DNA of 64,000 bases. Origin: Candidatus Methylobacter titanis. GTDB lineage: Bacteria > Pseudomonadota > Gammaproteobacteria > Methylococcales > Methylomonadaceae. A program made the position numbers and the translations under genes. The stretch spans positions 1 to 64,000 of the forward strand of contig JAQSDX010000007.1 in NCBI GenBank assembly GCA_029946125.1, given 5' to 3'. Below the pieces are notes generated by a model, which saw nothing but the letters and a program-made list of their open reading frames with translations, did no database searches and had not been told where the DNA came from. Of the stretch, positions 11,417-30,747 are shown piece after piece (the first letter of the stretch is position 1; the number at the start of each line of letters is the position of its first letter).

Positions 11417-11875
11417 GTGAAAAAATCGCAACGCATCAAAACCATAGTCGATATTAAGGCGACACAGGAAAAAAACGCTTTGGAAGTGCAGGGTGCTGTG
11501 CAGAGAAAACTGCTAGCCATGCAGACTCAAGTCGACGGGTTAAAAAATTATCGGCAAGAATACCAAGATAGATTTGACCTGTTAGGCAGTCAGGGTGTCA
11601 ATATTGCCCGGCTTCTGGAGTTTAGATCATTTATTGATAAGCTTGATAAGGCAATCATTGGCCAGGAGCAAGTATTGAGCTCAATTGAAGCTGATTTAAT
11701 GGTCAAAAGAAAGGTCTGGGAAGGGCTGCACCATAAAACCCAAAGTTTGCAGAAGGTATGTGATTCAGCTTTGGTGGCAGAAATGAAGCAGGAAGCTAAG
11801 CGTGAGCAACTGGAGCAGGATGAGCGAGCATCCAGAATCGGTCGTAATAACTCAGGTGGCACGGGGAATGCTTAA
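11417..11875 (+). CDS. fliJ: Flagellar export chaperone FliJ
   Basis: FliJ is the coiled-coil stalk of the export ATPase ring and an escort factor for FliH/FliI. The 152 residues are almost entirely charged and helical (for example QRKLLAMQTQVDGLKN and MKQEAKREQLEQDERA), with no membrane segment. Length and position between fliI and fliK support the call. It starts with GTG after an AAAGGATATAA ribosome-binding site. Confidence 0.9.
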   Translation: MKKSQRIKTIVDIKATQEKNALEVQGAVQRKLLAMQTQVDGLKNYRQEYQDRFDLLGSQGVNIARLLEFRSFIDKLDKAIIGQEQVLSSIEADLMVKRKVWEGLHHKTQSLQKVCDSALVAEMKQEAKREQLEQDERASRIGRNNSGGTGNA

Positions 11876-17988: not shown

Positions 17989-18306
17989 ACATATTGTCAG
18001 TGCTCACCCAGGCAAACGCATTAAAACGGCTTTAAAAACAGGGAAGAAATATCCGATGAAATCCCCAAGAAATCCCCCGCTACCACAAATAGAAGCTATA
18101 ACTGATTAGCCGGTAAAACAGCTGCAATTCTTCCGACACAGGTGCAAAACAACCGTTCGGTTGTTTTGCACCTTAAGGTTTTTTGTTATTTCCGGCTAAA
18201 TAATAAAAATAACAATTAAAATCATATTGTTATGGTAATTAAATAAGGATGGCATACTAATCGCATGTAACTTCGATATGAACTTTTTATCATGACGAGG
18301 ATTTTT
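17989..18306. other. Intergenic region between fchA and the first SulP gene
   Basis: Apart from the terminator at 18141-18186, this 318-bp AT-rich spacer shows no gene. The last 100 bp must contain the promoter of the SulP cluster; no confident -35/-10 pair was found. Confidence 0.4.
18141..18186 (+). terminator. Rho-independent terminator after fchA
   Basis: A 14-bp perfect stem GGTGCAAAACAACC/GGTTGTTTTGCACC (18141-18154 and 18159-18172) with a GTTC loop is followed by TTAAGGTTTTTTG. Confidence 0.85.
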
Positions 18307-19995
18307 ATGACTGAGCCATCCCTGCCTAGGTTACCAAAATCTGGTTTAGCCGGTTTAAAAGAAAACTGGCGTAGCGATTTGTTATCCGGTTTTCTGGTTT
18401 TTCTTATTGCGTTGCCGTTGTGCTTGGGTATAGCGATGGCGTCCGGTTTTCCGCCATCGTCCGGTATTATCACGGCTATTATTGGTGGGATGCTGGTTTC
18501 GCGTTTCAACGGGTCATTTGTAACGATTAACGGTCCGGCCGCCGGGTTGATTGTGGTGGTTCTTGGTGCGGTACAATCGTTGGGTGAAGGCGATGCGATG
18601 GCCGGTTACCGTTATACGCTGGCGGCTATCGTTATTGCCAGTGTGTTACAGATTCTGCTGGGCTTTTTTAAGGCGGGGCGGCTGAGCTCGTTTTTTCCGG
18701 CATCGGTGGTGCATGGTATGTTGGCGGCTATTGGCATTATTATCATGGCCAAGCAAATCAACGTGGTATTGGGTACTGCGCCGGAAAAAGGCAGTAGTCT
18801 GTTTTCGACTATCGCCCAGATTCCGCACAGCATTGTTAACCTTAATCCTGATATTGCCATTATCGGTGTTTCAGGATTGGTGATACTGATAATCTGGTCG
18901 GTTATAAAAAATCCTATCTTAAAGATGATTCCGGCTCCGCTCATCGTGGTGTTGGTGGGTATGGGCTTGGCGCGGTATTTTGACCTGCAACATGAGCACA
19001 TGTATTTGTTTCTGCCGGATGCCGATTTTTTGCCGCATCATGAAGAAACCGTCGGACCGAGGTTTCTAGTCGCTATTTCTGATAATTTCATGTCCGGTTT
19101 TTATTTCCCCGATTTTTCAAAATCACTGAATCTTGAATTCTGGGAAGCGGTGGTGAGCATTTGTTTGGTGGGCAGTCTTGAGAGTTTACTCAGCGCGATG
19201 GCGGTAGATAAACTTGATCCCTATAAACGTCATTCCAATCTTGATCGTGATTTAACTGCGGTGGGTGTTGGTAATCTGGTGGCCGGATTAATCGGTGGTT
19301 TGCCGATGATAGCGGAGATCGTGCGTAGTTCGGCTAATGTGAACAATGGGGCAAAAACCCAGTGGGCCAACTTTTTCCACGGCGCATTTTTATTGTTATT
19401 CGTGGTGCTGTTTCCGCGTTTGATTCACAGCATTCCGTTAGCGGCATTGGCTGCGTTGCTGGTCTTTACCGGTTTTCGGCTGGCTTCACCTAAAGAATTT
19501 GCCAAGGTCATGGGTGTTGGCAAAGAACAGTTGTTTATGTTCGTGGTGACGATTATCGGTGTATTGGCGACCGATTTATTAATCGGTGTCGGTATCGGCA
19601 TTTTAACCAAGTTTGCTATCCACCTGCTACGCGGCGTCAGGCTGAATAACCTGTTCAAGATTCATTTTGTTATTGACCCCAAAGACGATGATTCTGTTGT
19701 AGTCTCAATAGTAGGTGCTGCCATTTTCTCCAACTTCATGCCCTTAAAAACCGCTCTGGCCAATCTGGAAAACGGTAAGACGGTTATCTTTCAATTGAAC
19801 AATGCGTACATGCTTGATCATACCGTGATGGAATTCATTCATGATTTTCAGCATAACTATGAAAGGCAGGGCGGACAATGCAAGTTTTTCGGCATGGAAT
19901 ATCATGATACTTTTTCAGGACATCCTTTGGCGGTGCGCAGAATGAAGCGGAATCACATGAGTCGTCGTAAAAGCGACCATTATGGAATTAATTAG
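18307..19995 (+). CDS. SulP-family anion transporter with STAS domain (copy 1)
   Basis: This inner-membrane SLC26/SulP transporter could carry sulfate or, as in BicA-type proteins, bicarbonate with sodium. About twelve to fourteen hydrophobic segments span residues 20-440, starting with the family motif LVFLIALPLCLGIAMASG. A cytoplasmic STAS domain ends the protein (about 445-550, FKIHFVIDPKDDDSVVVSI ... LDHTVMEFIHDF). ATG 18307 has GAGGA six bases upstream; an in-frame ATG at 18292 is less likely. It is about 70 percent similar by eye to the second copy at 20792. Substrate is not decidable from sequence alone. Confidence 0.9.
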   Translation: MTEPSLPRLPKSGLAGLKENWRSDLLSGFLVFLIALPLCLGIAMASGFPPSSGIITAIIGGMLVSRFNGSFVTINGPAAGLIVVVLGAVQSLGEGDAMAGYRYTLAAIVIASVLQILLGFFKAGRLSSFFPASVVHGMLAAIGIIIMAKQINVVLGTAPEKGSSLFSTIAQIPHSIVNLNPDIAIIGVSGLVILIIWSVIKNPILKMIPAPLIVVLVGMGLARYFDLQHEHMYLFLPDADFLPHHEETVGPRFLVAISDNFMSGFYFPDFSKSLNLEFWEAVVSICLVGSLESLLSAMAVDKLDPYKRHSNLDRDLTAVGVGNLVAGLIGGLPMIAEIVRSSANVNNGAKTQWANFFHGAFLLLFVVLFPRLIHSIPLAALAALLVFTGFRLASPKEFAKVMGVGKEQLFMFVVTIIGVLATDLLIGVGIGILTKFAIHLLRGVRLNNLFKIHFVIDPKDDDSVVVSIVGAAIFSNFMPLKTALANLENGKTVIFQLNNAYMLDHTVMEFIHDFQHNYERQGGQCKFFGMEYHDTFSGHPLAVRRMKRNHMSRRKSDHYGIN

Positions 19996-20010
19996 ACGCA
20001 GATGTTTACT

Positions 20011-20043
20011 GTTAATAGTATTAAATGTTAATGCTATTAACAT
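20011..20043. promoter_or_regulatory. Nested palindromes upstream of the ribbon-helix-helix gene
   Basis: GTTAATAG (20011-20018) pairs with CTATTAAC (20034-20041), and ATGTTAAT (20025-20032) with ATTAACAT (20036-20043). Such symmetric AT-rich sites suit binding by a small dimeric regulator such as the ribbon-helix-helix protein encoded 55 bp downstream. Without a T-run it is a weaker terminator candidate. Confidence 0.45.
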
Positions 20044-20097
20044 TCAATGCTAGTTTTGATAATATGATGATTTAATTAATAACGATAAAGTCTTCTT

Positions 20098-20286
20098 ATG
20101 GAAACCTATACTGCCCGTTTGACATTATTGGTCGACCCGGATAAAAAACGGCTGTTCGAGAAAATTTGTGCCGCTCAGGATCTAACATCCTCACAGGTTG
20201 TGCGTCGCTTTATCCGCGAATATATCGATCAGCATGCCGCTCTAATTGATCAGGAAGCTTTGGCCGGAGAAACTAGTGAACATTGA
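20098..20286 (+). CDS. Small ribbon-helix-helix (CopG/Arc-like) protein
   Basis: This 62-residue protein has the ribbon-helix-helix layout: a beta strand (ETYTARLTLLVD), helix A (DKKRLFEKICAAQD), the turn LTSSQ, and helix B (VVRRFIREYIDQH). Proteins of this type are dimeric DNA binders and often autoregulators or antitoxins. No toxin gene is adjacent. Its place between two SulP paralogues and after nested palindromes suggests a local transcription factor. This role is an inference. Confidence 0.7.
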   Translation: METYTARLTLLVDPDKKRLFEKICAAQDLTSSQVVRRFIREYIDQHAALIDQEALAGETSEH

Positions 20287-20791
20287 GATTCATCTTGCGA
20301 CCTGAAGATTGTGCGGCGACTAACGCGCAGGGGGTATTGTGTTGCGTGGAAATGATGACCCTGAAAGGTTCAGTCAATTCTGGAGCGAAACCCCGATTGT
20401 TGCTCACAGCCTGGCAAGGCCTCAACTTGCTGGCAGGTGTGGTTACTTGTATCGCTTGACGGTTAAACCCTGATGCCGCAAAAGGCATTGGGAGAAAACG
20501 GGTCGAACAGTCTATGGTTGCCCTGAATGCATAAAGCATCAGCAAATTCCATGTGTTCGTCAAACGCCATGATACTACCGCCTCAAACTTTTGGGGGAAG
20601 TTAGACTGGGAACTACGTAAGGATACCCCAGTGAATTCTTTTTCAGGGAATTGAAGTTTAACAATACGAATGATGAAACTGCGGACTACTTACGTTTCGG
20701 AATTCAAAAAACAACTATCCATGATGAGTTTTTGCAGGTCTCTGCAAAGTAAATGGATCAAACGGCAATGCTTGAATCAACGAGGAATGGT
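20287..20791. other. 505-bp unexplained region between the RHH gene and the second SulP gene
   Basis: No convincing gene occupies this stretch. Several local hairpins are visible: GCAAG/CTTGC near 20416-20433, ATGCC/GGCAT near 20471-20490 and ATGC/GCAT near 20528-20541. The last 130 bp reads open in one frame to TAA at 20750-20752, without a start codon. It may be an insertion-sequence relic, a structured RNA or a decayed gene. The minus strand has a 96-codon frame with no recognisable domain, which I do not call. Confidence 0.4.
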
Positions 20792-22387
20792 ATGAATAAG
20801 CTTTCTCTGTCAACTTCACCAAAAACCGGCTTGGCCGGATTAAAAGAAAACTGGCGCAGTGATTTACAGTCCGGTTTTCTGGTTTTTCTTATCGCGTTGC
20901 CATTGTGCCTGGGTGTCTCTGTGGCTTCCGGCTTTCCACCGTCGGCGGGTATTATCACCGCTATTATCGGGGGGATGCTGGTATCGCGTATTAGCGGTTC
21001 ATACCTGACTATCAATGGGCCGGCTGCCGGGTTAATTGTGGTGGTTTTGGGGGCGGTGCAAGCGCTGGGTGAAGGCGATGCTTTGGCCGGTTATCGTTAT
21101 ACCTTGGCGGCGATTGTGGTAGCCAGTGTTTTGCAGATTCTGATGGGGAGATTTAAAATGGGACAGCTGAGTTCCTTTTTTCCCACGTCGGTGGTACATG
21201 GCATGTTGGCTGCGATTGGCATTATCATCATCGCTACACAAACCCATGTGATGCTGGGGGTAACGCCGCAACCAGGTAGTCTGTTTTCAATCATCGCACA
21301 GATTCCGCATAGCTTGCTGAGCATGAATGCTAAAATCGGCCTGATCAGTTTTTTAGGTTTGCTAATACTCATTATTTGGCCGTTAATCGGCAGCAAGATT
21401 CCCGCTGCGGTCATTGTGGTGCTGGCAGGTATACTGTTCGCCTGGCATTTTGATCTGGCAAAAGACGCGGTCATCGGCGGGCCGAAGATTATGGTTCCGC
21501 TTCCCGATAATTTTCTGGCCGACTTTTATTTTCCCGATTTTTCCAAACTATTCACCGTAGCCTTTTGGGAAGCCGTGATTGCTATCAGTCTAGTGGGCAG
21601 TATTGAAAGCATGCTGAGCGCGACAGCGGTCGATAAGCTGGATCCCTATAAACGCACTTCTGATCTTGATCGCGATTTAACGGCTATCGGAATCGGTAAC
21701 ATGGTAGCCGGTTTAATAGGCGGTTTGCCGATGATTTCTGACATTATCCGCAGTTCGGCAAATGTCAGAAATGGGGCCAAAACAGCCTGGGCTAACTTCT
21801 TTCATGGCTTGGTATTATTACTGTTTGTGGTCTTGTTTACTGGAGTTATACAAAGTATTCCACTGGCTTCATTGGCGGCATTATTGGTCTATACCGGTTA
21901 TCGTTTAGCCTCGCCTGCAATCTTCGCCAGTGTATTGGCTATTGGCAAAGATCAGTTATTCATATTTGTTGTTACGATTATCGGTGTGTTAGCGACCGAT
22001 CTATTGATAGGCGTCGCTTTGGGCATTATTGTTAAATTTGCCATTGATCTGGTACGAGGCGTTTGGCTTGGCAATCTGTTCAAGATTTATTTTACGATTC
22101 AACAACAGGATAACGATACACTCGTTGTCAAACTCTTAGGTTCGGCGTTATTTTCAAACTTCTTGCCGTTAAAAAAAGCGCTTGCCAGACTGGAGCCGGG
22201 TAAAACCATTATTTTTGATTTCACCGAGGGTTACCTGATTGATCATACCGTGATGGGATTTATCCATGATTTTAGACAAAACTATGAAGCTCAGGGCGGA
22301 CGCTGTCAGAAAGTAGGTAAAGCCTTGGAAACGTTTTCAGATCATGCGCTCGCTGCACGGTTAATGACAGCTGATGATAGAGGGTGA
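20792..22387 (+). CDS. SulP-family anion transporter with STAS domain (copy 2)
   Basis: A paralogue of the transporter at 18307, with the same domain order: about twelve to fourteen membrane segments, then a STAS domain (about 425-520, with LIDHTVMGFIHDF). The motifs FLIALPLCLGVSVASGFPP and NGPAAGLIVVVLGAVQ are shared almost exactly, so the two arose by duplication. The STAS ends differ most. The ATG at 20792 has GAGGAATGGT upstream; an ATG at 20753 would add 13 residues. An 11-bp hairpin separates it from the Ehr-like complex genes, which probably share its transcript. Confidence 0.9.
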   Translation: MNKLSLSTSPKTGLAGLKENWRSDLQSGFLVFLIALPLCLGVSVASGFPPSAGIITAIIGGMLVSRISGSYLTINGPAAGLIVVVLGAVQALGEGDALAGYRYTLAAIVVASVLQILMGRFKMGQLSSFFPTSVVHGMLAAIGIIIIATQTHVMLGVTPQPGSLFSIIAQIPHSLLSMNAKIGLISFLGLLILIIWPLIGSKIPAAVIVVLAGILFAWHFDLAKDAVIGGPKIMVPLPDNFLADFYFPDFSKLFTVAFWEAVIAISLVGSIESMLSATAVDKLDPYKRTSDLDRDLTAIGIGNMVAGLIGGLPMISDIIRSSANVRNGAKTAWANFFHGLVLLLFVVLFTGVIQSIPLASLAALLVYTGYRLASPAIFASVLAIGKDQLFIFVVTIIGVLATDLLIGVALGIIVKFAIDLVRGVWLGNLFKIYFTIQQQDNDTLVVKLLGSALFSNFLPLKKALARLEPGKTIIFDFTEGYLIDHTVMGFIHDFRQNYEAQGGRCQKVGKALETFSDHALAARLMTADDRG

Positions 22388-22396
22388 TTATAGAGC

Positions 22397-22442
22397 TGAC
22401 TTTAGTGAAACAAGCGTCAGTGACACGGCACCACTAAAGTCA
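22397..22442. repeat. Palindromic element between SulP copy 2 and the hyfB-like gene
   Basis: Perfect 11-bp arms TGACTTTAGTG (22397-22407) and CACTAAAGTCA (22432-22442) surround a 24-base loop. There is no T-run, so read-through into the downstream genes is possible. It resembles the ACTAAAGTC part of the repeat at 24609-24665. Confidence 0.6.
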
Positions 22443-22471
22443 CTCCTCCTCCAACATTAACTGAGAATTTC

Positions 22472-24598
22472 ATGATCCTTGTATTAGCTTATTGCGCTGT
22501 TCTGTTAAGCTTTGCTTCCGGCTTGTTGGCATTGATGATGCATCAGCGCCACAATTTTCTGGCGCTTAGTCAATATTGGTTGAAAAAATCTCCTGACAGT
22601 AATCGAAATTACGAGTTAGTGATCGATAGTAGTCTGGAAGAAAAGCAGTTTTTGATTTTGCTACGGCAAGCGGTGTTTGTTTTGCTGGGTTTGTCCGGCA
22701 TTTTTGCCGTGCTGGCCGGGTTGAGCGTATTAATCAGTAAAGAGGTTGTCACCGATCAAATCAGTTTGGGCCTGCCTTGGCTGCCTTGGCATGTCCGTTT
22801 TGACTGCTTGTCAGGTTTTTTCTTTTTAATCGTGGGTATTGCGGTAAGCGCAGTCAGTCTATATGGGCCGGGCTATGTCAATAGTTATGACGAAAGCCAG
22901 CATCCATTTGCCGTTTTGGGCTTGTTTACCGGACTGTTCGTTGCCGGGATGTTACTGGTGCTGTTGGCCGATGACGCCTTCTTTTTCATGATTGCCTGGG
23001 AGTTGATGTCGGTTGCCAGTTATTTTCTGGTGGCGTTCCAGCATGAAAATTCAGCCAATCGCCGCGCCGCTTTTCTTTATTTATTGATGGCAGAAGTCGG
23101 TGCATTAGCCATTATTCTGGGCTTTGGCGTACTGGCCGGTTTTGCAGACGGCTTTACTTTCGATGCCTTGCGTGAGGCGAAGCTGTCAACTACCTGGGCC
23201 AGCATCGCCTTTATGTTGGCACTGCTCGGTTTCGGCATGAAGGCCGGTATAGTCCCCGTGCATGTTTGGTTGCCGGAAGCGCATCCGGTGGCGCCTTCGC
23301 ATATTTCCGCATTGATGAGCGGGGTGATGCTTAAAGTCGCCCTCTACGGACTGATTCGTTTCTGCTTTGATTTGCTCGGCGATGTGCACTGGCAATGGGG
23401 GGTGGTGCTGCTGATACTGGGAACTATTTCGGCGCTGGGCGGTATTTTGTACGCGATGATGCAGACCAATTTAAAACGCTTGTTGGCTTACAGTTCGGTC
23501 GAAAACATCGGCATTATCTTTATGGTACTGGGGCTGTCGATGATTTTTATGGCAAACGGTCAGCCGCAACTGGCTGCACTGGGTTTATTGGCGGCGTTGT
23601 TTCACGCCTTTAATCATGCCTTGTTCAAAAATTTATTGTTTCTGGGCGCAGGCATCATTCAACATCAAACCCATCAGTTAAATATCGACATGATGGGCGG
23701 ACTGATTAAAAAAATGCCGAAAACCAGTGTGTTATTTTTGATCGGCTGTATGAGTATCTCGTCATTACCGTTGTTTAACGGCTTTGTTTCGGAATGGCTG
23801 GCTTTTCAGACCGCATTACAGGTCGATGTGCTGGACAATGGCGTATTGCGCAGCTTGATACCGGTTGCCGCCGCCGCATTAGCCTTGACAGCGGCATTGG
23901 CGGCCGCCTGTTTTGTCAAAGTATTCGGCTTGATCTTTTTGGGACAACCCCGTTCTCATCATTGCGATAAAGCGCATGAAGTCCAGGACAAAGGCATGCT
24001 GGCAGGTCCTGCACTACTGGCCGGTTTGTGCTTTTTGTTCGGGATTTTTCCTGGCCCGGTAATCAGTCTGATCAACGGCGTTTCCGGGCAATTATTAGGT
24101 GAAACCTTACCGAATGACGCCGCTTTAGGCTGGTTGTGGCTGGCACCGGTTTCTGCTAATCAAGCTTCTTATGCTCCTCCGTTAGTTCTGATCGGAGCGC
24201 TGATTGCCGGCGGCATCAGTTTTTGGTATTTGCGGCGCAATCCCACAACGGCGTTACGCAGAGCTGAAACCTGGGATTGCGGTTTTGGCGGGTTAACGCC
24301 GAGTATGCAATACAGCAGCAGCGCTTTTACCATGCCTTTCCGGCGGATTTTCGCCAAAGTCTGGATTGTCGACGAGCAGATCGATAAAGACATGCACGGC
24401 GCAATGAATCAGGATGTGGCGGCGGTTCATTATCAGTTGCAGATTCAGGATCACAGTTGGCCGCGTTTGTATGAACCGATTGAACACGGGGTAAACGCAT
24501 TAGCCAAATTAGTGGGGCGCATTCAAACAGGCAATATCCGGCTTTATCTTAGCTATTCGCTTGCAACTTTACTATTACTGTTATGGGTAATCAGCTGA
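22472..24598 (+). CDS. HyfB/HycC-like antiporter subunit of an Ehr-type membrane complex
   Basis: This large membrane protein of the NuoL/NuoM/Mrp-antiporter superfamily translocates ions in complex I, Hyf and related complexes. About sixteen hydrophobic segments are visible, including the proton-channel motifs (DDAFFFMIAWELMSVASYF, GFGMKAGIVPVHVWLPEAHP, HAFNHALFKNLLFLGAG) with conserved Glu, Lys and His. The 708-residue length matches HyfB (about 670). It is the first of six consecutive genes, all in one direction. Confidence 0.88.
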   Translation: MILVLAYCAVLLSFASGLLALMMHQRHNFLALSQYWLKKSPDSNRNYELVIDSSLEEKQFLILLRQAVFVLLGLSGIFAVLAGLSVLISKEVVTDQISLGLPWLPWHVRFDCLSGFFFLIVGIAVSAVSLYGPGYVNSYDESQHPFAVLGLFTGLFVAGMLLVLLADDAFFFMIAWELMSVASYFLVAFQHENSANRRAAFLYLLMAEVGALAIILGFGVLAGFADGFTFDALREAKLSTTWASIAFMLALLGFGMKAGIVPVHVWLPEAHPVAPSHISALMSGVMLKVALYGLIRFCFDLLGDVHWQWGVVLLILGTISALGGILYAMMQTNLKRLLAYSSVENIGIIFMVLGLSMIFMANGQPQLAALGLLAALFHAFNHALFKNLLFLGAGIIQHQTHQLNIDMMGGLIKKMPKTSVLFLIGCMSISSLPLFNGFVSEWLAFQTALQVDVLDNGVLRSLIPVAAAALALTAALAAACFVKVFGLIFLGQPRSHHCDKAHEVQDKGMLAGPALLAGLCFLFGIFPGPVISLINGVSGQLLGETLPNDAALGWLWLAPVSANQASYAPPLVLIGALIAGGISFWYLRRNPTTALRRAETWDCGFGGLTPSMQYSSSAFTMPFRRIFAKVWIVDEQIDKDMHGAMNQDVAAVHYQLQIQDHSWPRLYEPIEHGVNALAKLVGRIQTGNIRLYLSYSLATLLLLLWVIS

Positions 24599-24608
24599 TG
24601 ATCACCAG

Positions 24609-24665
24609 TGTGGGAGCGACTTCAGTCGCCCAATGTATCAACGGGGGACTAAAGTCGCCTCCACA
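24609..24665. repeat. REP-like palindromic element
   Basis: TGTGGGAGCGAC (24609-24620) mirrors GTCGCCTCCACA (24654-24665) almost perfectly. Inside, GCGACT/AGTCGC forms a second stem. TGTGGGAGCGACTTCAGTCGC resembles REP elements common in gammaproteobacteria. It lies in the 80-bp gap before the hyfC-like gene. Confidence 0.75.
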
Positions 24666-24680
24666 GTATGGAGAAATGCG

Positions 24681-25625
24681 ATGAATTGGTTAATAGCCGT
24701 GTTACAAACCACCTTGTTTGTCATCCTGGCGCCGTTATTGGCCGGCTGGGTCAAATGCTGCAAATGTCGATTACAGAATCGCAAAGCCCCTTCTGTTTTT
24801 CAGTCTTACCGGGATTTGCTTAAATTAACCTATAAACAACCCGTAGTCTCGGAACAGGCTTCATGGTTATTTATTAAAGCGCCATACATTATTTTCTCAG
24901 CAACAGTGTTGGCGGCAACCGTGGTGCCGTTGATTGCCGTTGATTTGCCGACTTCGGCCAGCGCCGATGTCATTGTGATGGTGGGTTTTTTTGCCTTTGC
25001 CCGGTTTTTTCTGGCGTTGGCAGGTCTAGACGTTGGTACCGCGTTCGGTGGCATGGGCTCATCTCGGGAAATGACTATTTCATCGCTGGCGGAACCGGCG
25101 ATGTTGATGGCTATTTTTACCCTGACCATGGCGGCATCGACGACCAACTTATCCTTTGCTATCGCCCATGTGCTCGGTGAAGGTTTAGTTTTACGGCCTT
25201 CGTTTGTATTTGCTTTGGCTGCGTTGATACTGGTTGCCATTGCCGAAACCGGTCGCATTCCGGTGGATAATCCGGCGACGCATCTGGAGTTGACCATGAT
25301 TCATGAAGCGATGATTCTTGAATACAGCGGTCGTCATCTGGGGCTGATTGAGTGGGCGAGTCAGTTGAAGTTGATGTTGTATGGTGTGTTGATCGCCAAT
25401 ATCTTTTTCCCCTGGGGCATAGCCGAAACTCTTAGTCTTGAAGCGCTGGGCTATGGCTTGTTGGCTATTATGGGCAAACTTGCGGTGCTGGCGATTTTTC
25501 TGGCGATAGCGGAAACGCTGGTTGCAAAAATGCGCCTGTTTCGGGTGCAGGAATACCTCAGTTTTGCCTATTTGTTAGGCTTGCTGGGAATGTTAAGCCA
25601 CATCATTTTAGAGGCGTCGAGGTGA
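24681..25625 (+). CDS. HyfC/HycD/NuoH-like membrane subunit
   Basis: This is the subunit that connects the soluble arm to the membrane arm in complex I and group 4 hydrogenases (NuoH family). About eight hydrophobic segments, GRIPVDNPATHLELTMIHEAMILE (24 residues, at about 193-216) with its conserved acidic residues, and YRDLLKLTYKQP near residue 35 are typical. The ATG at 24681 follows GGAGAAATGCG; a longer reading into the upstream repeat is rejected. Length is 314 residues. Confidence 0.9.
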   Translation: MNWLIAVLQTTLFVILAPLLAGWVKCCKCRLQNRKAPSVFQSYRDLLKLTYKQPVVSEQASWLFIKAPYIIFSATVLAATVVPLIAVDLPTSASADVIVMVGFFAFARFFLALAGLDVGTAFGGMGSSREMTISSLAEPAMLMAIFTLTMAASTTNLSFAIAHVLGEGLVLRPSFVFALAALILVAIAETGRIPVDNPATHLELTMIHEAMILEYSGRHLGLIEWASQLKLMLYGVLIANIFFPWGIAETLSLEALGYGLLAIMGKLAVLAIFLAIAETLVAKMRLFRVQEYLSFAYLLGLLGMLSHIILEASR

Positions 25626-25632
25626 TGAGTGA

Positions 25633-25695
25633 TCAAGGTGCAAGGCAAAAACCGCGCATCGTATTCCTCCTTTTGCCTTGCATCTTTAACCTTGA
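25633..25695. repeat. Inverted repeat between hyfC-like and hyfE-like genes
   Basis: GCAAGGCAAAA (25640-25650) pairs perfectly with TTTTGCCTTGC (25671-25681), and the flanks TCAAGG/CCTTGA (25633-25638, 25690-25695) extend the stem. The AAGG-rich units resemble those at 39015-39076 and at the nusB end. Confidence 0.7.
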
Positions 25696-25704
25696 GTCTT
25701 AATC

Positions 25705-26382
25705 ATGAACATTGAACAATTAGATTTTTATACGCAGGCGATTTTATCGATGGCGGCATTGGTCGGGCTTACCTCGTTTCTTATGTTAGGGCAGGGACGG
25801 TTGCTGCGGCTGATTTTTGTCTTTGCCCTGCAGGGTTTTTTATTAACCTTGACCACGGTATTGGCGGCATACAGTCTGGATAGCCATCATCTGTATATTT
25901 CTGCGGTGCTGACTTTGCTGCTGAAAGTTATTTTTATCCCGTGGATGTTGAGGCGGCAGGTTTTAAAAATGGCTATGCATCGCGATATTGAAGCCTTAAA
26001 AAATAATACCGTGGTGATGATGGGCGGAGCCAGTCTGATGGTCTTCAGTTATTACGTGCTGCACCCTATTGTGCAATCCTCATCGGTGGTCATGCTGAAT
26101 GCTTTGGCCGTCAGTCTTTCCGTGATGCTGCTAGGCATGTTGTTAATGATTTCGCATCGGCAGGCTATCGCCCATGTGGTTGGCTTTATGTCGATAGAAA
26201 ACGGTTTGTTTTTCGCAGCCATTGTTGCCACTAATGGTATGCCGATGGTGGTTGAACTGGGTATTGCCTTCGACGTACTGGTGGCGGCGGTGCTGTTCGG
26301 CATCTTTTTCCTGCACATCCGCACCAGTATTGATTCGCTGGATGTCGATCTGCTAAACAAGTTACACGAGGTGGATAAATGA
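25705..26382 (+). CDS. HyfE-like small membrane subunit
   Basis: The 225-residue protein has about seven hydrophobic segments and resembles HyfE, the NuoK/MrpC-related subunit of group 4 membrane complexes. FMSIENGLFFAAIVATNG (about 165-185) carries a conserved Glu that NuoK-type proteins use in ion transfer. It overlaps the next gene by 4 bp. Sequence conservation in this subunit is low, and the call rests mainly on position and topology. Confidence 0.82.
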   Translation: MNIEQLDFYTQAILSMAALVGLTSFLMLGQGRLLRLIFVFALQGFLLTLTTVLAAYSLDSHHLYISAVLTLLLKVIFIPWMLRRQVLKMAMHRDIEALKNNTVVMMGGASLMVFSYYVLHPIVQSSSVVMLNALAVSLSVMLLGMLLMISHRQAIAHVVGFMSIENGLFFAAIVATNGMPMVVELGIAFDVLVAAVLFGIFFLHIRTSIDSLDVDLLNKLHEVDK

Positions 26383-27842
26383 TTGCCGTCTATTTGGTCT
26401 TATTGATACCGTTAGTCGGCATACTCTATTTTGCGCTGTCTGGACACCGAGAAGACACCGGAAGAATGAATGTCCGCTTCAACGGCATCACGTTGCTGGC
26501 CACTGTCTGGCTTGCGATTAATGTACTTAATCAGGGTACGATAATTTCAACAGACAAGGCTTTTTTAATCGATCCGTTTAATGTGTATTTGATTGTGTTA
26601 ACGGCTTTTGTCGGCTTCACCACGTCGATATTTTCCTCGCCCTATATGGCGCATGAAAAGGAAATCGGCAAGCTCAGTGATAAGCGCTTAAAACTGTATT
26701 ACTCCATGTTTCAGGGTTTTATGCTGGCCATGTACCTGGTATTGACCACCAATAATATGGGAATCATGTGGGTGGCGATGGAAGGCGCGACGCTGGCAAC
26801 CGTGATGCTGGTTAGTCTGTACCGTACACCGGAGTCTATCGAGGCGGCGTGGAAATATTTTATTTTGTGCGGTGTGGGTATTGCCCAGGCGCTGTTCGGC
26901 ACTATTTTGCTGTATTACGCGGCAGTGCAGATAGGCGACGGGGAAAATGCCTTGCTGTGGTCGGTGCTTTACGAAAACGCCGATAAATTAAATCCGGAAA
27001 TTCTTAATATTGCCTTTGTTTTTTTACTGATTGGTTACGGTACCAAAATCGGTCTGGTACCTTTGCATAACTGGTTGCCGGATGCCCATTCCGAAGGTCC
27101 GACGCCGATGTCGGCGGTATTGTCGGGATTGCTGTTAAACGATGCCCTATACGCGGTGGTGCGCAATAAAATGCTGGTGGATGGAGCGACAGACTCCAAT
27201 ATGGCCGGTTATCTGATGATGGGCTTCGGCCTGCTGTCGTTCCTGGTCGCCGCGATACTGCTGCACCGACAGAAAGATATCAAACGACTGTTCAGTTACT
27301 CATCCATTGAGCACATGGGACTGATGACCTTTGCCTTCGGCATCGGCGGTCCGTTAGCCACATTTGCCGCCTTGCTGCACATGACCGTGCATTCACTGAC
27401 CAAGTCGGCCATTTTTGTTACTGTAGGTTATGCGGCGCAGCTTGCCGGAACCCAGCGTATAGACCAGATACGCGGCCTGATTAAAACCCAGCCCAAGATT
27501 GGTTGGGGGCTGTTGATCGGCACCATTTCCATTGCCGGATTTCCACCGTTTGGCGTCTTCACCAGTGAATTTCTGGTGCTGCTGGCGACCATGCACAGTT
27601 ATCCGTGGTTGACGCTACCGCTGCTGCTGGGGATCGGCATCGCCTTTGCCGGACTGTTCCGGCATATCCAGCCGATGGTTTACGGCGACAGACCCGAAGG
27701 GCAGAATCCGATTAAAGCCAATTTGTGGCCGGTGACGATACATCTTGCCTTGGTGCTTTGGCTGGGTCTGGCTATCCCCGGCTTCCTGGCGCACTGGTTT
27801 TCACAAGCGACACTGTTGATTTCCGGGAGTACGCCGTTATGA
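26379..27842 (+). CDS. HyfF-like antiporter subunit
   Basis: This is a second NuoL/M/N-type antiporter-like subunit (487 residues, about 13-14 hydrophobic segments). YGTKIGLVPLHNWLPDAHSE and HMTVHSLTKSAIFVTVGYA contain the Lys and His residues of the putative ion path. It overlaps hyfE-like upstream (TAAATGA region) and the large-subunit gene downstream (ATGA). With the hyfB-like protein it gives the complex two pump-like modules. Confidence 0.88.
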   Translation: MIAVYLVLLIPLVGILYFALSGHREDTGRMNVRFNGITLLATVWLAINVLNQGTIISTDKAFLIDPFNVYLIVLTAFVGFTTSIFSSPYMAHEKEIGKLSDKRLKLYYSMFQGFMLAMYLVLTTNNMGIMWVAMEGATLATVMLVSLYRTPESIEAAWKYFILCGVGIAQALFGTILLYYAAVQIGDGENALLWSVLYENADKLNPEILNIAFVFLLIGYGTKIGLVPLHNWLPDAHSEGPTPMSAVLSGLLLNDALYAVVRNKMLVDGATDSNMAGYLMMGFGLLSFLVAAILLHRQKDIKRLFSYSSIEHMGLMTFAFGIGGPLATFAALLHMTVHSLTKSAIFVTVGYAAQLAGTQRIDQIRGLIKTQPKIGWGLLIGTISIAGFPPFGVFTSEFLVLLATMHSYPWLTLPLLLGIGIAFAGLFRHIQPMVYGDRPEGQNPIKANLWPVTIHLALVLWLGLAIPGFLAHWFSQATLLISGSTPL

Positions 27843-29413
27843 GTTCTTCAAACTGGACTACGGATTTTTTAAGCCGGCTGAGTACGGATATTTCGGTTAC
27901 CCGGATCAAACTACCGTCAATTATGCTATGGCAAATCGAAAGCCACGTATGGCAACGCTTTGCAGAACAGGCCGTACAGCAAAACCTGCGTTGGGCTGCC
28001 GGATGGGCGGAACAGGTTGATAGCCAGTTCTTCATCAATGCCTGTTTTGAAAAACACGGCGAGTATGTGCTGTTGCGCACGATCGTGGATGATTCAAGCC
28101 CGGAACTTCCCAGTCAGGCCACGGTTTATCCCGCTGCCAACCGCAGTGAACGTCATACGCAAGACCTATTCGGGATCAAATTTATTGGGCATCCCGATAA
28201 CAGGCGCTGGACGCGGCATCAAGCCTGGATTGAAAAAAACTATCCGTTGCGCAAAGATTTTCCGGTTCAGGGTACGCCGGTAGGTATCACGCCGCCCGAT
28301 AGGGATTATCCGTTTATTAAAGCCCACGGGCAGGGCGTGTATGAAATTCCTGTTGGACCTGTGCATGCCGGCATTATCGAGCCTGGGCATTTCCGCTTTC
28401 AGGCAGTCGGCGAACTGATCCTAAACCTGGAAGAACGTTTGGGTTATACGCATAAAGGCATAGAAAAAATTGCAGAAGGCAGGGAACCCGAATCTTTGGC
28501 CAGACTGGCGGGGCGTATTTCCGGCGATACCACGGTCGGACATTGCTGGGCCGCCTGTATGGCAATGGAGCAAGCAGCGGGCATTGAAATTCCAGCTCGC
28601 GCTGCGTTGATACGCGGCATTCTGGCCGAACGGGAACGCGTCGCCAACCATCTCGGCGATATAGGTGCGATTTGTAATGATGTCGCTTTTGTATTCGCGC
28701 AAATGCAGTTGACCCGCTTGCGCGAACTTTGGCTGCGCACCAATGCAACGGTGTTCGGCCATCGTTTGCTTATGGACACTATTGTACCGGGCGGCGTTGC
28801 CTGCGATTTGTCTTCGGCATCCTGCGCCTTGATCAAGAACGACATAGCCGAATTAAGAATGGAACTGGCGGAAGTCATACTCGTGCTGGATCTTAATTCC
28901 TCACTGGAAGACCGGCTGTATACGGCCGGTTTTCTGTCTGAAGAAATCGCCGCCGCATTTGGAACCTTAGGCTATGTCGGCCGCGCCAGCGGACAGGATA
29001 AGGATGTACGCCGCGATGCGCCCTATGCGCCTTATAATCGGGTAACCGTTAAGGTCGCGCTGGAAACACAAGGCGATATTGCCTCTCGGTTTTGGGTTAG
29101 ATACAAGGAGATCAGAACTGCTTTGCGGCTGATCGAAAATTTCATCGACCAACTGGCTGCCGGTGACATACGAAGCGAATGGAAAACACCACTTGCAGGT
29201 AGTGAAGGTTTGGGTATTGTTGAAGGCTGGCGCGGCGAAATTATCAGCTACATTCGTTTTGATGCCGATAACAAAATCGCCCGTTTTTATCCGCGCGACC
29301 CCAGTCAATTGAACTGGCCTGCGTTGGAAAAACTGGTGTTGAATAATATCGTGCCGGATTTTCCTGTGTGCAACAAATCCCTGAATGGCTCTTATTCAGG
29401 CAATGATTTATAG
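27839..29413 (+). CDS. Fused NuoC/NuoD-like large subunit lacking NiFe ligands (Ehr-type)
   Basis: This 524-residue protein fuses a complex I 30-kDa-like domain (about 55-145, with RHTQDLFGIKFIGHPDNRR) to a 49-kDa/hydrogenase-large-subunit-like domain (about 190-520), as in HycE and HyfG. In real NiFe hydrogenases two CxxC motifs hold the metal centre. Here the first site reads GRISGDTTVGHCW and the second DFPVCNKSLNG, so three of four ligand cysteines are absent. The protein therefore cannot bind a standard NiFe centre. It fits the described energy-converting-hydrogenase-related group. The ATG at 27839 overlaps the preceding stop. Confidence 0.88.
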   Translation: MSSSNWTTDFLSRLSTDISVTRIKLPSIMLWQIESHVWQRFAEQAVQQNLRWAAGWAEQVDSQFFINACFEKHGEYVLLRTIVDDSSPELPSQATVYPAANRSERHTQDLFGIKFIGHPDNRRWTRHQAWIEKNYPLRKDFPVQGTPVGITPPDRDYPFIKAHGQGVYEIPVGPVHAGIIEPGHFRFQAVGELILNLEERLGYTHKGIEKIAEGREPESLARLAGRISGDTTVGHCWAACMAMEQAAGIEIPARAALIRGILAERERVANHLGDIGAICNDVAFVFAQMQLTRLRELWLRTNATVFGHRLLMDTIVPGGVACDLSSASCALIKNDIAELRMELAEVILVLDLNSSLEDRLYTAGFLSEEIAAAFGTLGYVGRASGQDKDVRRDAPYAPYNRVTVKVALETQGDIASRFWVRYKEIRTALRLIENFIDQLAAGDIRSEWKTPLAGSEGLGIVEGWRGEIISYIRFDADNKIARFYPRDPSQLNWPALEKLVLNNIVPDFPVCNKSLNGSYSGNDL

Positions 29414-29422
29414 GAAGGGAAC

Positions 29423-29938
29423 ATGCTGAGCATTTTTAAAAAAATCCTGGCCACGGGTGTCGTTACTGAACAACTTACAATGCCCAAAGATGATGAACTG
29501 GAGCAGTTGGGCATCCACATCAAACGATATATCGACAAGAAATTTTCCGGCAGTATTGCAATACGCGCTGTCGATGCGGGTTCCTGTAACGGCTGCGAAC
29601 TGGAAATTCACGCATTGAACAATCCCTTTTACGATATTGAACGTTTTGGTATTCATTTTGTGGCATCCCCCAGGCACGCCGACGTGCTATTGGTCACAGG
29701 ACCGGTTTCAAGACACATGCAAACTGCATTACTGCGCACTTATGAAGCGACACCGAATCCGAAATGGGTGATTGCCGTCGGTGATTGCGCAGCCTGCGGT
29801 GGCGAATTCGGTGTGTCTTATGCCAGTTGCGGAGCGGTATCCAATGTCATTCCGGTCGATGCGGTGATTCCCGGTTGCCCACCTACACCTTTGATGTTGA
29901 TGCAGGGCTTGTTGGGTTTAATGGGTGTTAAGAAATGA
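29423..29938 (+). CDS. HyfI/NuoB-like small subunit
   Basis: This is the small subunit that carries the proximal [4Fe-4S] cluster next to the large subunit. The four expected cysteines are present: CNGCE near residue 54, GDCAACGG near 119 and GCPP near 153. The 171-residue length is between NuoB and HyfI. It is 9 bp after the large subunit. Its intact cluster site, with the altered large subunit, points to electron flow or redox sensing without hydrogen chemistry. Confidence 0.92.
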   Translation: MLSIFKKILATGVVTEQLTMPKDDELEQLGIHIKRYIDKKFSGSIAIRAVDAGSCNGCELEIHALNNPFYDIERFGIHFVASPRHADVLLVTGPVSRHMQTALLRTYEATPNPKWVIAVGDCAACGGEFGVSYASCGAVSNVIPVDAVIPGCPPTPLMLMQGLLGLMGVKK

Positions 29939-30099
29939 GAAAACTTAGTTGGTTTTTGTAACTGGAGACTTGCTCTCGTCCTTTGCCTTGTGCTTTTAGC
30001 CTTTTTCGTGTTTCCAGGATTAACCGCGTTGTAATGTTTCTTACTTATTTGCAATTGCCCAAATATCAAGTAGATTGTTTTCCTTTGTAAATAATAGTG

Positions 30100-30747
30100 A
30101 TGATTGATATGAATAATTTTTTGTCTTTTCAAATTCATGGTGGAGCCGATCACGGCGGTGGTGTTGCCGACAGCGTTTCTAGTCTGCTGGTTTTTTTTGA
30201 GGGACTTTCAACGCGTGATTCGGCAGATATTTTTTCGACATTAATGCCGGGTCTTTCCAGTATGGATAATATCCATCCAGTGTTGGTGCATTTTCCTATT
30301 GCATTGTTATCGGCTTTTTTTGCTTTGGACATGATGGGTACGCTGGTCAAAAAACAACATTGGCGTAACGTTGCCGGTTGGTTGTTGTACTTGGGCGCCG
30401 TCGCCGCCGTCTTTACAGTGATTGCCGGTTTCAGTGCGGCCGGTTCCGTAGCACATGGAGAGGAGGTTCATGGCATTATGGAACGGCATAAGAATTTTGG
30501 TGTAGCTGTACTTTGTTTGGCGATTTTATTATCAGCTTGGCGGGCAATCAGTGGCGGTGTCATTGAAGGCCTGGCTAATTGCTTTTTTCTGGCATTAGCG
30601 ACGTTATTGATTGGGTTAATGGTATTAGGCGCCGATCTAGGCGGATTGATGGTTTATCAATATGGTGTGGCCGTTAAGTCGCTTCAGATTGAAGTTCCTG
30701 GCTCTCATGAGCATGAGCATGGACATGAGCATACTCATCAGCATTAA
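30100..30747 (+). CDS. DUF2231-like membrane protein with His-rich tail
   Basis: The 215-residue protein has about five hydrophobic segments. [20 protein letters not shown] is the hallmark of DUF2231 (haem or metal-related membrane proteins of unknown role). The last 14 residues are a His/Glu repeat ([13 protein letters not shown]), a likely metal-binding tail. GTG 30097 and ATG 30109 are other possible starts. It is 161 bp behind the small subunit, so co-transcription is uncertain. Confidence 0.78.

What the first reader, a model, noticed from the sequence alone, without database searches (positions are those of the whole stretch)
18307..29938. Two SulP transporters linked to a hydrogenase-like complex without NiFe ligands
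Two paralogous SulP proteins (BicA-like bicarbonate or sulfate type), a small DNA-binding protein and six same-strand genes of a Hyf/complex-I-like complex form one block. The large subunit lacks three of the four NiFe-binding cysteines, so hydrogen chemistry is excluded and the complex fits the Ehr group. I infer that an ion-translocating, redox-linked module may energise or regulate anion or inorganic-carbon uptake in a C1-using organism. The link of transport to this complex is, to my knowledge, not well described.
Basis: partly seen in the sequence, partly recalled or inferred. Interest (0 to 1): 0.85.

Follow-up and report, generated by a model that had tools for sequence, protein, structure and literature searches.

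The report
SulP transporters joined to hydrogenase-like complex
In many methane-eating bacteria genes for a probable bicarbonate transporter sit beside those for a relative of respiratory complex I that has lost its hydrogenase metal site, apparently under one shared switch, which gives a poorly understood class of complexes a testable role in ion-driven carbon or anion uptake.

Summary
The block is real: two SulP genes (66% identical), an RHH_9 regulator gene and hyfB-C-E-F-G-I on one strand in a Methylobacter-group genome. One detail is wrong: the large subunit lacks all four NiFe cysteine positions, not three. Adjacency is conserved: of 29 assessable Methylococcales loci, 24 have SulP beside or inside the Ehr operon, 2 have decayed SulP remnants there, 3 have none. 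In Methylocaldum sp. 14B sulP lies between hyfF and hyfG. Outside the order, 5 of 46 genomes carry a SulP within 2 kb (0.12 expected, relatedness not corrected). A sigma-54 site (window 18250-18265) precedes the first SulP in 20 of 21 Ehr-linked cases tested (1.2% of random 100-mers). An NtrC-type regulator pair lies beside Ehr in some genomes and beside unlinked SulP copies in others. SulP1/2 group with SulPs of the same genome that include a carbonic anhydrase fusion, so bicarbonate is the likelier substrate. No RuBisCO was found in the 23 genomes of the genus searched, so Calvin-cycle fixation is not the purpose. Best reading: a sigma-54-controlled bicarbonate or ion-homeostasis module with an Ehr ion pump. 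Transcription as one unit, substrate, pumping and coupling are inferred.

The parts
18140..18173 (+). intrinsic-terminator-like hairpin (15 pairs) that would end the upstream transcription unit
   Evidence: the longest stem of 22 terminator-like sites found (18.1 expected by shuffling)
18250..18265 (+). putative sigma-54 promoter TGGCATACTAATCGCA (GG-N10-GC) before SulP1
   Evidence: only match of TGGCAYN5TYGCW in the 64-kb window (33 of 100 shuffles have at least one); such a site within 100 nt of the first SulP in 20 of 21 Ehr-linked genes against 1.2% of random 100-mers
18307..19995 (+). SulP1 anion transporter; an ATG at 18292 is also open, but an AGGA stretch lies just before 18307
   Evidence: PF00916 E 3e-64; groups with SulPs of the same genome that include a SulP-carbonic anhydrase fusion
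20098..20286 (+). 62-aa RHH_9 ribbon-helix-helix protein, probable DNA-binding regulator
   Evidence: PF19839 E 2e-22; 0-2 matches per genome in 46 genomes; RHH matches in 11 of 120 Ehr loci besides the window
20753..22387 (+). SulP2, paralogue of SulP1, 84 bp before hyfB
   Evidence: PF00916 E 2e-55; 66% identical to SulP1
22472..24598 (+). hyfB-type antiporter-like membrane subunit
   Evidence: NCBIfam hydrogenase 4 subunit B, 817 bits over a cut-off of 667; E177 107/107, K257 108/108, K386 112/112
24633..25625 (+). hyfC/NuoH-type membrane subunit
   Evidence: PF00146 E 2e-34
25705..26382 (+). hyfE-type membrane subunit
   Evidence: NF008556 83.5 bits, below its cut-off of 136; no Pfam match; place in the operon conserved
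26379..27842 (+). hyfF-type antiporter-like membrane subunit
   Evidence: NCBIfam hydrogenase 4 subunit F, 777 bits over a cut-off of 543; E135 112/112, K223 112/113, K342 115/115
27836..29413 (+). hyfG (NuoCD-like) large subunit without NiFe ligands
29423..29938 (+). hyfI/NuoB-like small subunit with a complete four-cysteine [4Fe-4S] site
   Evidence: C55, C58, C122 and C152 in 112 of 112 relatives

Best explanation
The block is one sigma-54-controlled transport module. An NtrC-type response regulator (in this genome on another contig) would switch it on together with sigma-54. SulP1/SulP2 most likely carry bicarbonate. Ehr would be an ion-translocating membrane complex that keeps one [4Fe-4S] site and the charged residues of the pump modules but has neither a NiFe site nor the usual quinone ligands. 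It would maintain the H+ or Na+ gradient or pH balance that SulP works with, supplying bicarbonate for anaplerotic carboxylation or pH control in a methanotroph without RuBisCO. Shown: gene content, loss of the NiFe ligands, conserved adjacency, conserved sigma-54-type site, regulator linkage in some genomes. Inferred: transcription as one unit, promoter activity, bicarbonate as substrate, ion pumping, energetic coupling.
For: Adjacency: 24 of 29 assessable Methylococcales loci have SulP beside or inside the Ehr operon and 2 more have decayed SulP pieces there; in Methylocaldum sp. 14B sulP lies between hyfF and hyfG, and the Methylocalor plasmid has SulP remnants at that same place and before hyfB. 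Outside the order 5 of 46 genomes have a SulP within 2 kb, 0.12 expected; in three of them (L102, L128, L141) it ends under 90 bp before hyfB on the same strand. Regulation: sigma-54-type site in 20 of 21; rpoN present. The kinase and NtrC-type regulator lie within 8 kb of the large-subunit gene in 5 of 24 genomes that have both and beside SulP copies not linked to Ehr in G004 (no Ehr; 83-86% identical), G034 and, regulator only tested, G027 and G039. Substrate: SulP1/2 share the KLDPYKR insertion and the GLIGGLP...RS motif with three SulPs of the same genome, one fused to a carbonic anhydrase, and group with them under midpoint rooting (1.00); PMC6458275 (section 14 read) ties the carbonic anhydrase-linked SulP clade to a bicarbonate transporter. 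Carbonic anhydrases near Ehr: alpha type in L159 and L161; a weak CsoSCA-like match in L102 with a 67% identical homologue in L172.
Against: 41 of 46 genomes outside the order have no SulP within 2 kb. Each partner occurs alone: SulP without a detected Ehr in G004, G005, G020 and G024; Ehr and SulP apart in G027, G034 and G039. The regulator is not near Ehr in 19 of 24 genomes with both, the window genome included, and G002 has the regulator pair with neither Ehr nor a close SulP. Only 4 of 11 SulP genes of this type away from Ehr have the sigma-54 site. RuBisCO: 0 of 23 genomes of the genus; in the class 19 of 35 with Ehr against 15 of 41 without, p = 0.17. Calvin-cycle genes near Ehr in 3 of 120 loci. 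The Ehr-linked SulPs outside the order that were put in the tree (L102, L128, L141 a and b, L176) fall among STAS-type SulPs, not with the carbonic anhydrase group. BicA sodium-site positions (recalled) are not kept. Burkholderia Ehr clusters sit beside spermidine synthase, YoaK and YjdM genes, and spermine/spermidine synthase is as frequent as STAS upstream of Ehr outside the order (6 of 113 ORFs each).
Confidence: 0.42

Rival explanations
1. SulP1/2 carry sulfate or an organic anion such as a C4-dicarboxylate. Ehr is a general redox-driven pump needed under the same conditions. The link is shared regulation, not inorganic carbon.
For: DauA (C4-dicarboxylate) is the best NCBIfam hit of both SulPs, though far below its cut-off (196 and 177 of 614 bits). 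Ehr-linked SulPs outside the order are STAS-type. NtrC-type pairs commonly control organic-acid uptake (recalled).
Against: Grouping with SulPs that include a carbonic anhydrase fusion; carbonic anhydrases near Ehr in L159 and L161 and, weakly, L102.
Confidence: 0.3
2. Ehr is a respiratory or fermentative electron-transfer complex (for example taking electrons from a formate dehydrogenase), and SulP is a passenger or only balances charge.
For: PMC6349859 (passages) proposes FDH-Ehr complexes in other phyla, and PMC7735108 (passages) a formate role for the Acidithiobacillus ferrooxidans Hyf. The [4Fe-4S] cysteines are invariant.
Against: No ferredoxin-type or dehydrogenase subunit among the nine proteins scanned. 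Formate dehydrogenase is not among the 25 commonest families of the flanking ORFs outside the order (113 of 124 and 114 of 152 listed ORFs were given). SulP inside the operon and a promoter kept in 20 of 21 argue against a passenger.
Confidence: 0.18
3. Conserved adjacency in Methylococcales is mostly inherited synteny with no working link between SulP and Ehr.
For: No SulP beside Ehr in L161, L165 and L166, and decayed SulP in L159 and L214 while Ehr stays.
Against: Associations outside the order with another SulP subfamily; SulP inside the operon in Methylocaldum; adjacency kept down to 55-60% SulP identity.
Confidence: 0.1

Closest known systems
Ehr (energy-converting hydrogenase-related) complexes, Marreiros et al. 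2013 (seen only as a reference entry in PMC10284858)
   Same: Hyf/Hyc-type subunits with antiporter-like modules and no NiFe ligands
   Different: Here joined to SulP with a sigma-54-type promoter; the passages read call Ehr function unknown (PMC10284858) or only suspected to be charge translocation (PMC6349859)
E. coli formate hydrogenlyase / hydrogenase 4 (HycE, 7z0s)
   Same: Closest solved large subunit, E 2e-97; HyfB and HyfF pass the NCBIfam equivalog cut-offs
   Different: All four NiFe cysteines replaced; no HyfA/HyfH-like subunit in the block
Carbonic anhydrase-linked SulP transporters (clade C of PMC6458275, section 14 read)
   Same: Groups with own-genome SulPs that include such a fusion and shares sequence signatures
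   Different: No carbonic anhydrase fused or adjacent in the window; the clade C sequences of that paper were not available for the tree
DAB complexes (PMC13144422, passages) and cyanobacterial NDH-1MS (recalled)
   Same: Complex-I-type membrane subunits linked to inorganic carbon
   Different: No DabA (PF10070) among the proteins scanned and no known CO2-hydrating subunit; keeps NuoB/NuoCD-like subunits
Acidithiobacillus hyfBCEFG(I) clusters (PMC3826726 and PMC7735108, passages)
   Same: Hyf without hydrogenase-type catalytic sequence (PMC7735108); one cluster beside a beta-carbonic anhydrase, another with carbon fixation genes (PMC3826726)
   Different: Read there as hydrogenase or formate systems; no SulP linkage in the passages seen

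Membership tests
Ehr complex | Hyf/Hyc-type large and small subunits plus antiporter-like membrane subunits | tested here: met
Ehr complex | Loss of the NiFe-binding cysteines of the large subunit | tested here: met
   all four positions replaced; in relatives Cys at 229 in 1 of 119 and at 232 in 2 of 119, none at 519 and 522
Ehr complex | Ion translocation coupled to a redox reaction | not testable with these tools
   only conserved charged residues and cluster cysteines seen
[NiFe] group 4 hydrogenase | Two CxxC motifs binding Ni and Fe | tested here: not met
Respiratory complex I | His and Tyr quinone ligands of NuoD (positions recalled) | tested here: not met
   the alignment to 7q5y_B puts Ile181 and Gly230 there; Ile181 in 119 of 119, Gly230 nearly invariant in 24
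Respiratory complex I | NADH module and NuoI-like ferredoxin subunit in the cluster | tested here: not met
   none among the nine proteins scanned; the rest of the genome was not searched for them
BicA bicarbonate transporter | NCBIfam equivalog score over 880 bits | tested here: not met
   139 and 134 bits
Carbonic anhydrase-linked SulP | Tree position and signature motifs | tested here: inconclusive
   beside, not inside, the group of own SulPs with the fusion; midpoint rooting, 25 sequences
Carbonic anhydrase-linked SulP | Carbonic anhydrase fused or adjacent | tested here: not met
   none in the window block; an alpha-CA precedes the decayed SulP in L159
DAB complex | DabA (PF10070) subunit | tested here: not met
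   no PF10070 among the nine proteins scanned; whole genome not searched
Sigma-54 regulated operon | GG-N10-GC promoter element, rpoN and an NtrC-type activator in the genome | tested here: met
Sigma-54 regulated operon | Promoter activity dependent on rpoN and the activator | not testable with these tools
   needs transcript or reporter data

The most novel reading that the evidence does not exclude
Ehr is a further complex-I-derived inorganic-carbon machine besides DAB and NDH-1MS: the pocket that held NiFe in hydrogenases has become a conserved polar site (D231, N513-K514-S515, N517, S519-Y520, D524) that handles CO2/bicarbonate or gates ion flow, and the complex directly powers SulP bicarbonate transport under sigma-54 control.
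Probability: 0.1. Interest if true: 0.88.

Novelty: new variant of a known kind. Interest (0 to 1): 0.6.

Why it matters
Ehr-type complexes are widespread (large-subunit relatives at E <= 1e-60 in 37 of 276 genomes sampled from the class, the window genome included), and the papers seen offer proposals but no established function. A conserved transporter partner, a sigma-54-type promoter and a candidate two-component system give a short list of direct tests in methanotrophs. If the bicarbonate reading holds, methanotrophs without RuBisCO have a dedicated, energised bicarbonate system, and complex-I relatives linked to inorganic carbon extend beyond autotrophs.

Tried and rejected
Calvin-cycle purpose: rejected for this genus (several of the 23 genomes are under 90% complete). 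The class-level association with RuBisCO was not significant (counted by me at E < 1e-100; the 41 comparison genomes were the first by handle of the 239 without a match, not a random draw). Calvin-cycle genes and beta-CA beside Ehr were sought in all 120 loci L067-L186 with 8 queries; hits in L102, L110 and L170 only. SulP next to RuBisCO in G034 was dropped because a gene that reads as polA lies between them (name recalled). A clustering of neighbouring ORFs was dominated by antisense shadow ORFs, so family statements rest on Pfam; saw 113 of 124 upstream and 114 of 152 downstream ORFs listed. BicA identity was rejected on score. The L172 protein gave no Pfam hit; its carbonic anhydrase label rests on 67% identity to the L102 protein, itself a weak CsoSCA hit (1.6e-5). 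Names CbbO, CbbQ and aldolase in L203 and L110 are recalled from sequence; only VWA domains, RuBisCO and beta-CA were confirmed there. A structure prediction of the large subunit did not run.

Sets. L069 and L147 count as present although the contig begins inside SulP (in L147 only a 114-nt end is seen). L067, L071, L104, L157 and L160 were left out because the contig ends at or in the cluster; G003, G014 and G026 were not fetched (short contigs). On rechecking, L214 moved from 'no SulP' to 'decayed SulP'. The sigma-54 set of 21 leaves out L069, L091 and L147. In the 46-genome test relatedness was not corrected for; L075, L120 and L176, which also have a SulP near, were outside that set.
Full report
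What is there. The window lies in a 3.5-Mb genome (G000, 99.98% complete). SulP1, an RHH_9 gene, SulP2 and hyfB, C, E, F, G and I follow on the + strand from 18307 to 29938. A 15-pair hairpin with a T-rich tail at 18140-18173 lies between the upstream gene and SulP1. The six hyf genes overlap or lie less than 90 bp apart, and SulP2 ends 84 bp before hyfB.

Large subunit. The nearest solved relative is HycE of formate hydrogenlyase (E 2e-97). Its four NiFe cysteines align with Ser229, Thr232, Ser519 and Gly522, so all four are gone. The quinone His and Tyr of complex I (recalled) align with Ile181 and Gly230 (7q5y_B). Instead D231, N513, K514, S515 and Y520 are invariant and N517, S519 and D524 nearly so. 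HyfI keeps four cysteines in 112 of 112, and charged residues of HyfB, HyfC and HyfF are kept. The block holds no ferredoxin or dehydrogenase subunit.

Conserved link. Of 29 assessable Methylococcales loci, 24 carry SulP beside or inside the operon, 2 have decayed SulP pieces there (L159; L214) and 3 have no SulP match (L161, L165, L166). In Methylocaldum sp. 14B the SulP gene sits between hyfF and hyfG; the plasmid of Ca. Methylocalor cossyra has SulP remnants at that same place and also before hyfB. In the genomes of the three loci without it, SulP of this type is elsewhere (G027, G034, G039). Outside the order, 5 of 46 genomes have a SulP within 2 kb of the cluster (L085 on the opposite strand, L102, L121, L128, L141) against 0.12 expected (relatedness not corrected). 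In L102, L128 and L141 it ends under 90 bp before hyfB. Among 113 upstream ORFs outside the order the commonest Pfam families were STAS (6), spermine/spermidine synthase (6) and SulP (5).

Regulation. A GG-N10-GC site with at least 9 of 11 consensus matches lies within 100 nt of the first SulP in 20 of 21 Ehr-linked genes (not in L077), in 4 of 11 SulP genes of this type away from Ehr, and in 1.2% of random 100-mers. In the window it is the only match of the family pattern (33 of 100 shuffles have at least one, so the strength is in conservation and place). rpoN is present. After hyfI 20 Methylococcales loci carry a DUF2490 gene, and 9 carry all or part of an NtrC-type regulator with a GAFTGA loop, mostly with a histidine kinase. 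Of 24 genomes with both regulator and Ehr, 5 have them within 8 kb (G013, G022, G023, G029, G040) and 19 do not. Kinase and regulator flank SulP in G004, which has no detected Ehr; they and the DUF2490 gene flank a SulP in G034; the regulator lies near SulP in G027 and G039 and near a more distant SulP in G028. In the window genome the pair is at C72:6239-9162. G002 has the pair with neither Ehr nor a close SulP.

RHH_9. 17 of 46 genomes have a match, none more than 2. RHH matches lie in 11 of the 120 Ehr loci besides the window, often just upstream of hyfB, and two annotated Burkholderia plasmids show a CopG-type RHH gene there.

Substrate. In a FastTree of 25 SulPs, midpoint rooted, the window pair and its orthologues group (1.00) with three SulPs of the same genome, one fused to a beta-carbonic anhydrase, and share signatures with them. 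PMC6458275 (section 14 read in full, other parts as passages) reports that the carbonic anhydrase-linked SulP clade contains a bicarbonate transporter. Alpha-carbonic anhydrases lie upstream of Ehr in L159 (same strand) and L161 (opposite strand). A weakly CsoSCA-like protein and its 67% homologue follow hyfI in L102 and L172. RuBisCO with CbbQ- and CbbO-like genes follows hyfI in Thiomonas L110. In G313 an aldolase-like gene (name recalled) starts about 2.3 kb and RuBisCO about 6 kb after hyfI, with a beta-carbonic anhydrase further on. These are few among 120 loci and were not tested formally. RuBisCO is absent from the 23 genomes of the genus searched and not significantly tied to Ehr in the class (19 of 35 against 15 of 41, p = 0.17).

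Literature. The searches listed no paper that I could see joining SulP to Ehr; these were title and abstract-start listings, and only the papers named here were opened, as passages unless stated. PMC10284858 and PMC6349859 state that Ehr lacks the Ni/Fe-binding residues; the first calls its function unknown, the second suspects charge translocation and proposes FDH-Ehr complexes. PMC3826726 describes an Acidithiobacillus caldus hyf cluster beside a beta-carbonic anhydrase and another with carbon fixation genes. PMC10880623, on inorganic-carbon toolkits, has no occurrence of 'hydrogenase', 'hyf', 'complex i' or 'ndh'. PMC12810054, on Methylobacter genomes, has no occurrence of 'ehr'. PMC10974252 and PMC11540253 were looked at and gave nothing that bears on the link.

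Verdict. A real, conserved and probably co-regulated association of known parts. Ehr membership is met on the features that could be tested; BicA membership is not. The bicarbonate and ion-pump reading is the best supported but unproven.

Noticed in passing
L119, L123, L142: Two Hyf/Ehr-type clusters, one of them partly read, lie close together in these loci (betaproteobacterial, Burkholderiales and Geobacter MAGs).
   Followed up: no
G000:C66:6625-9782 (L003, L004): A second tandem SulP pair in the window genome, the second fused to STAS and a beta-carbonic anhydrase.
   Followed up: partly
window 30097-30747: A DUF2231 membrane protein follows hyfI; among the loci a match appears only in the closest relative, G015 (L147). 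20 other Methylococcales loci have a DUF2490 gene after hyfI.
   Followed up: partly
L214, L215, L216, L217: Large-subunit relatives occur in 83 plasmid records, including Rhodococcus; two Burkholderia clusters have YjdM, spermidine synthase, YoaK and CopG genes beside them.
   Followed up: partly
L214:6060-6158 and 11506-11843: Decayed SulP pieces before hyfB and between hyfF and hyfG on a Ca. Methylocalor plasmid, with transposases nearby.
   Followed up: partly
L175 (G070): Only the large-subunit gene is found in the 17.8 kb read, without the other Ehr genes; whether they lie elsewhere was not checked.
   Followed up: no
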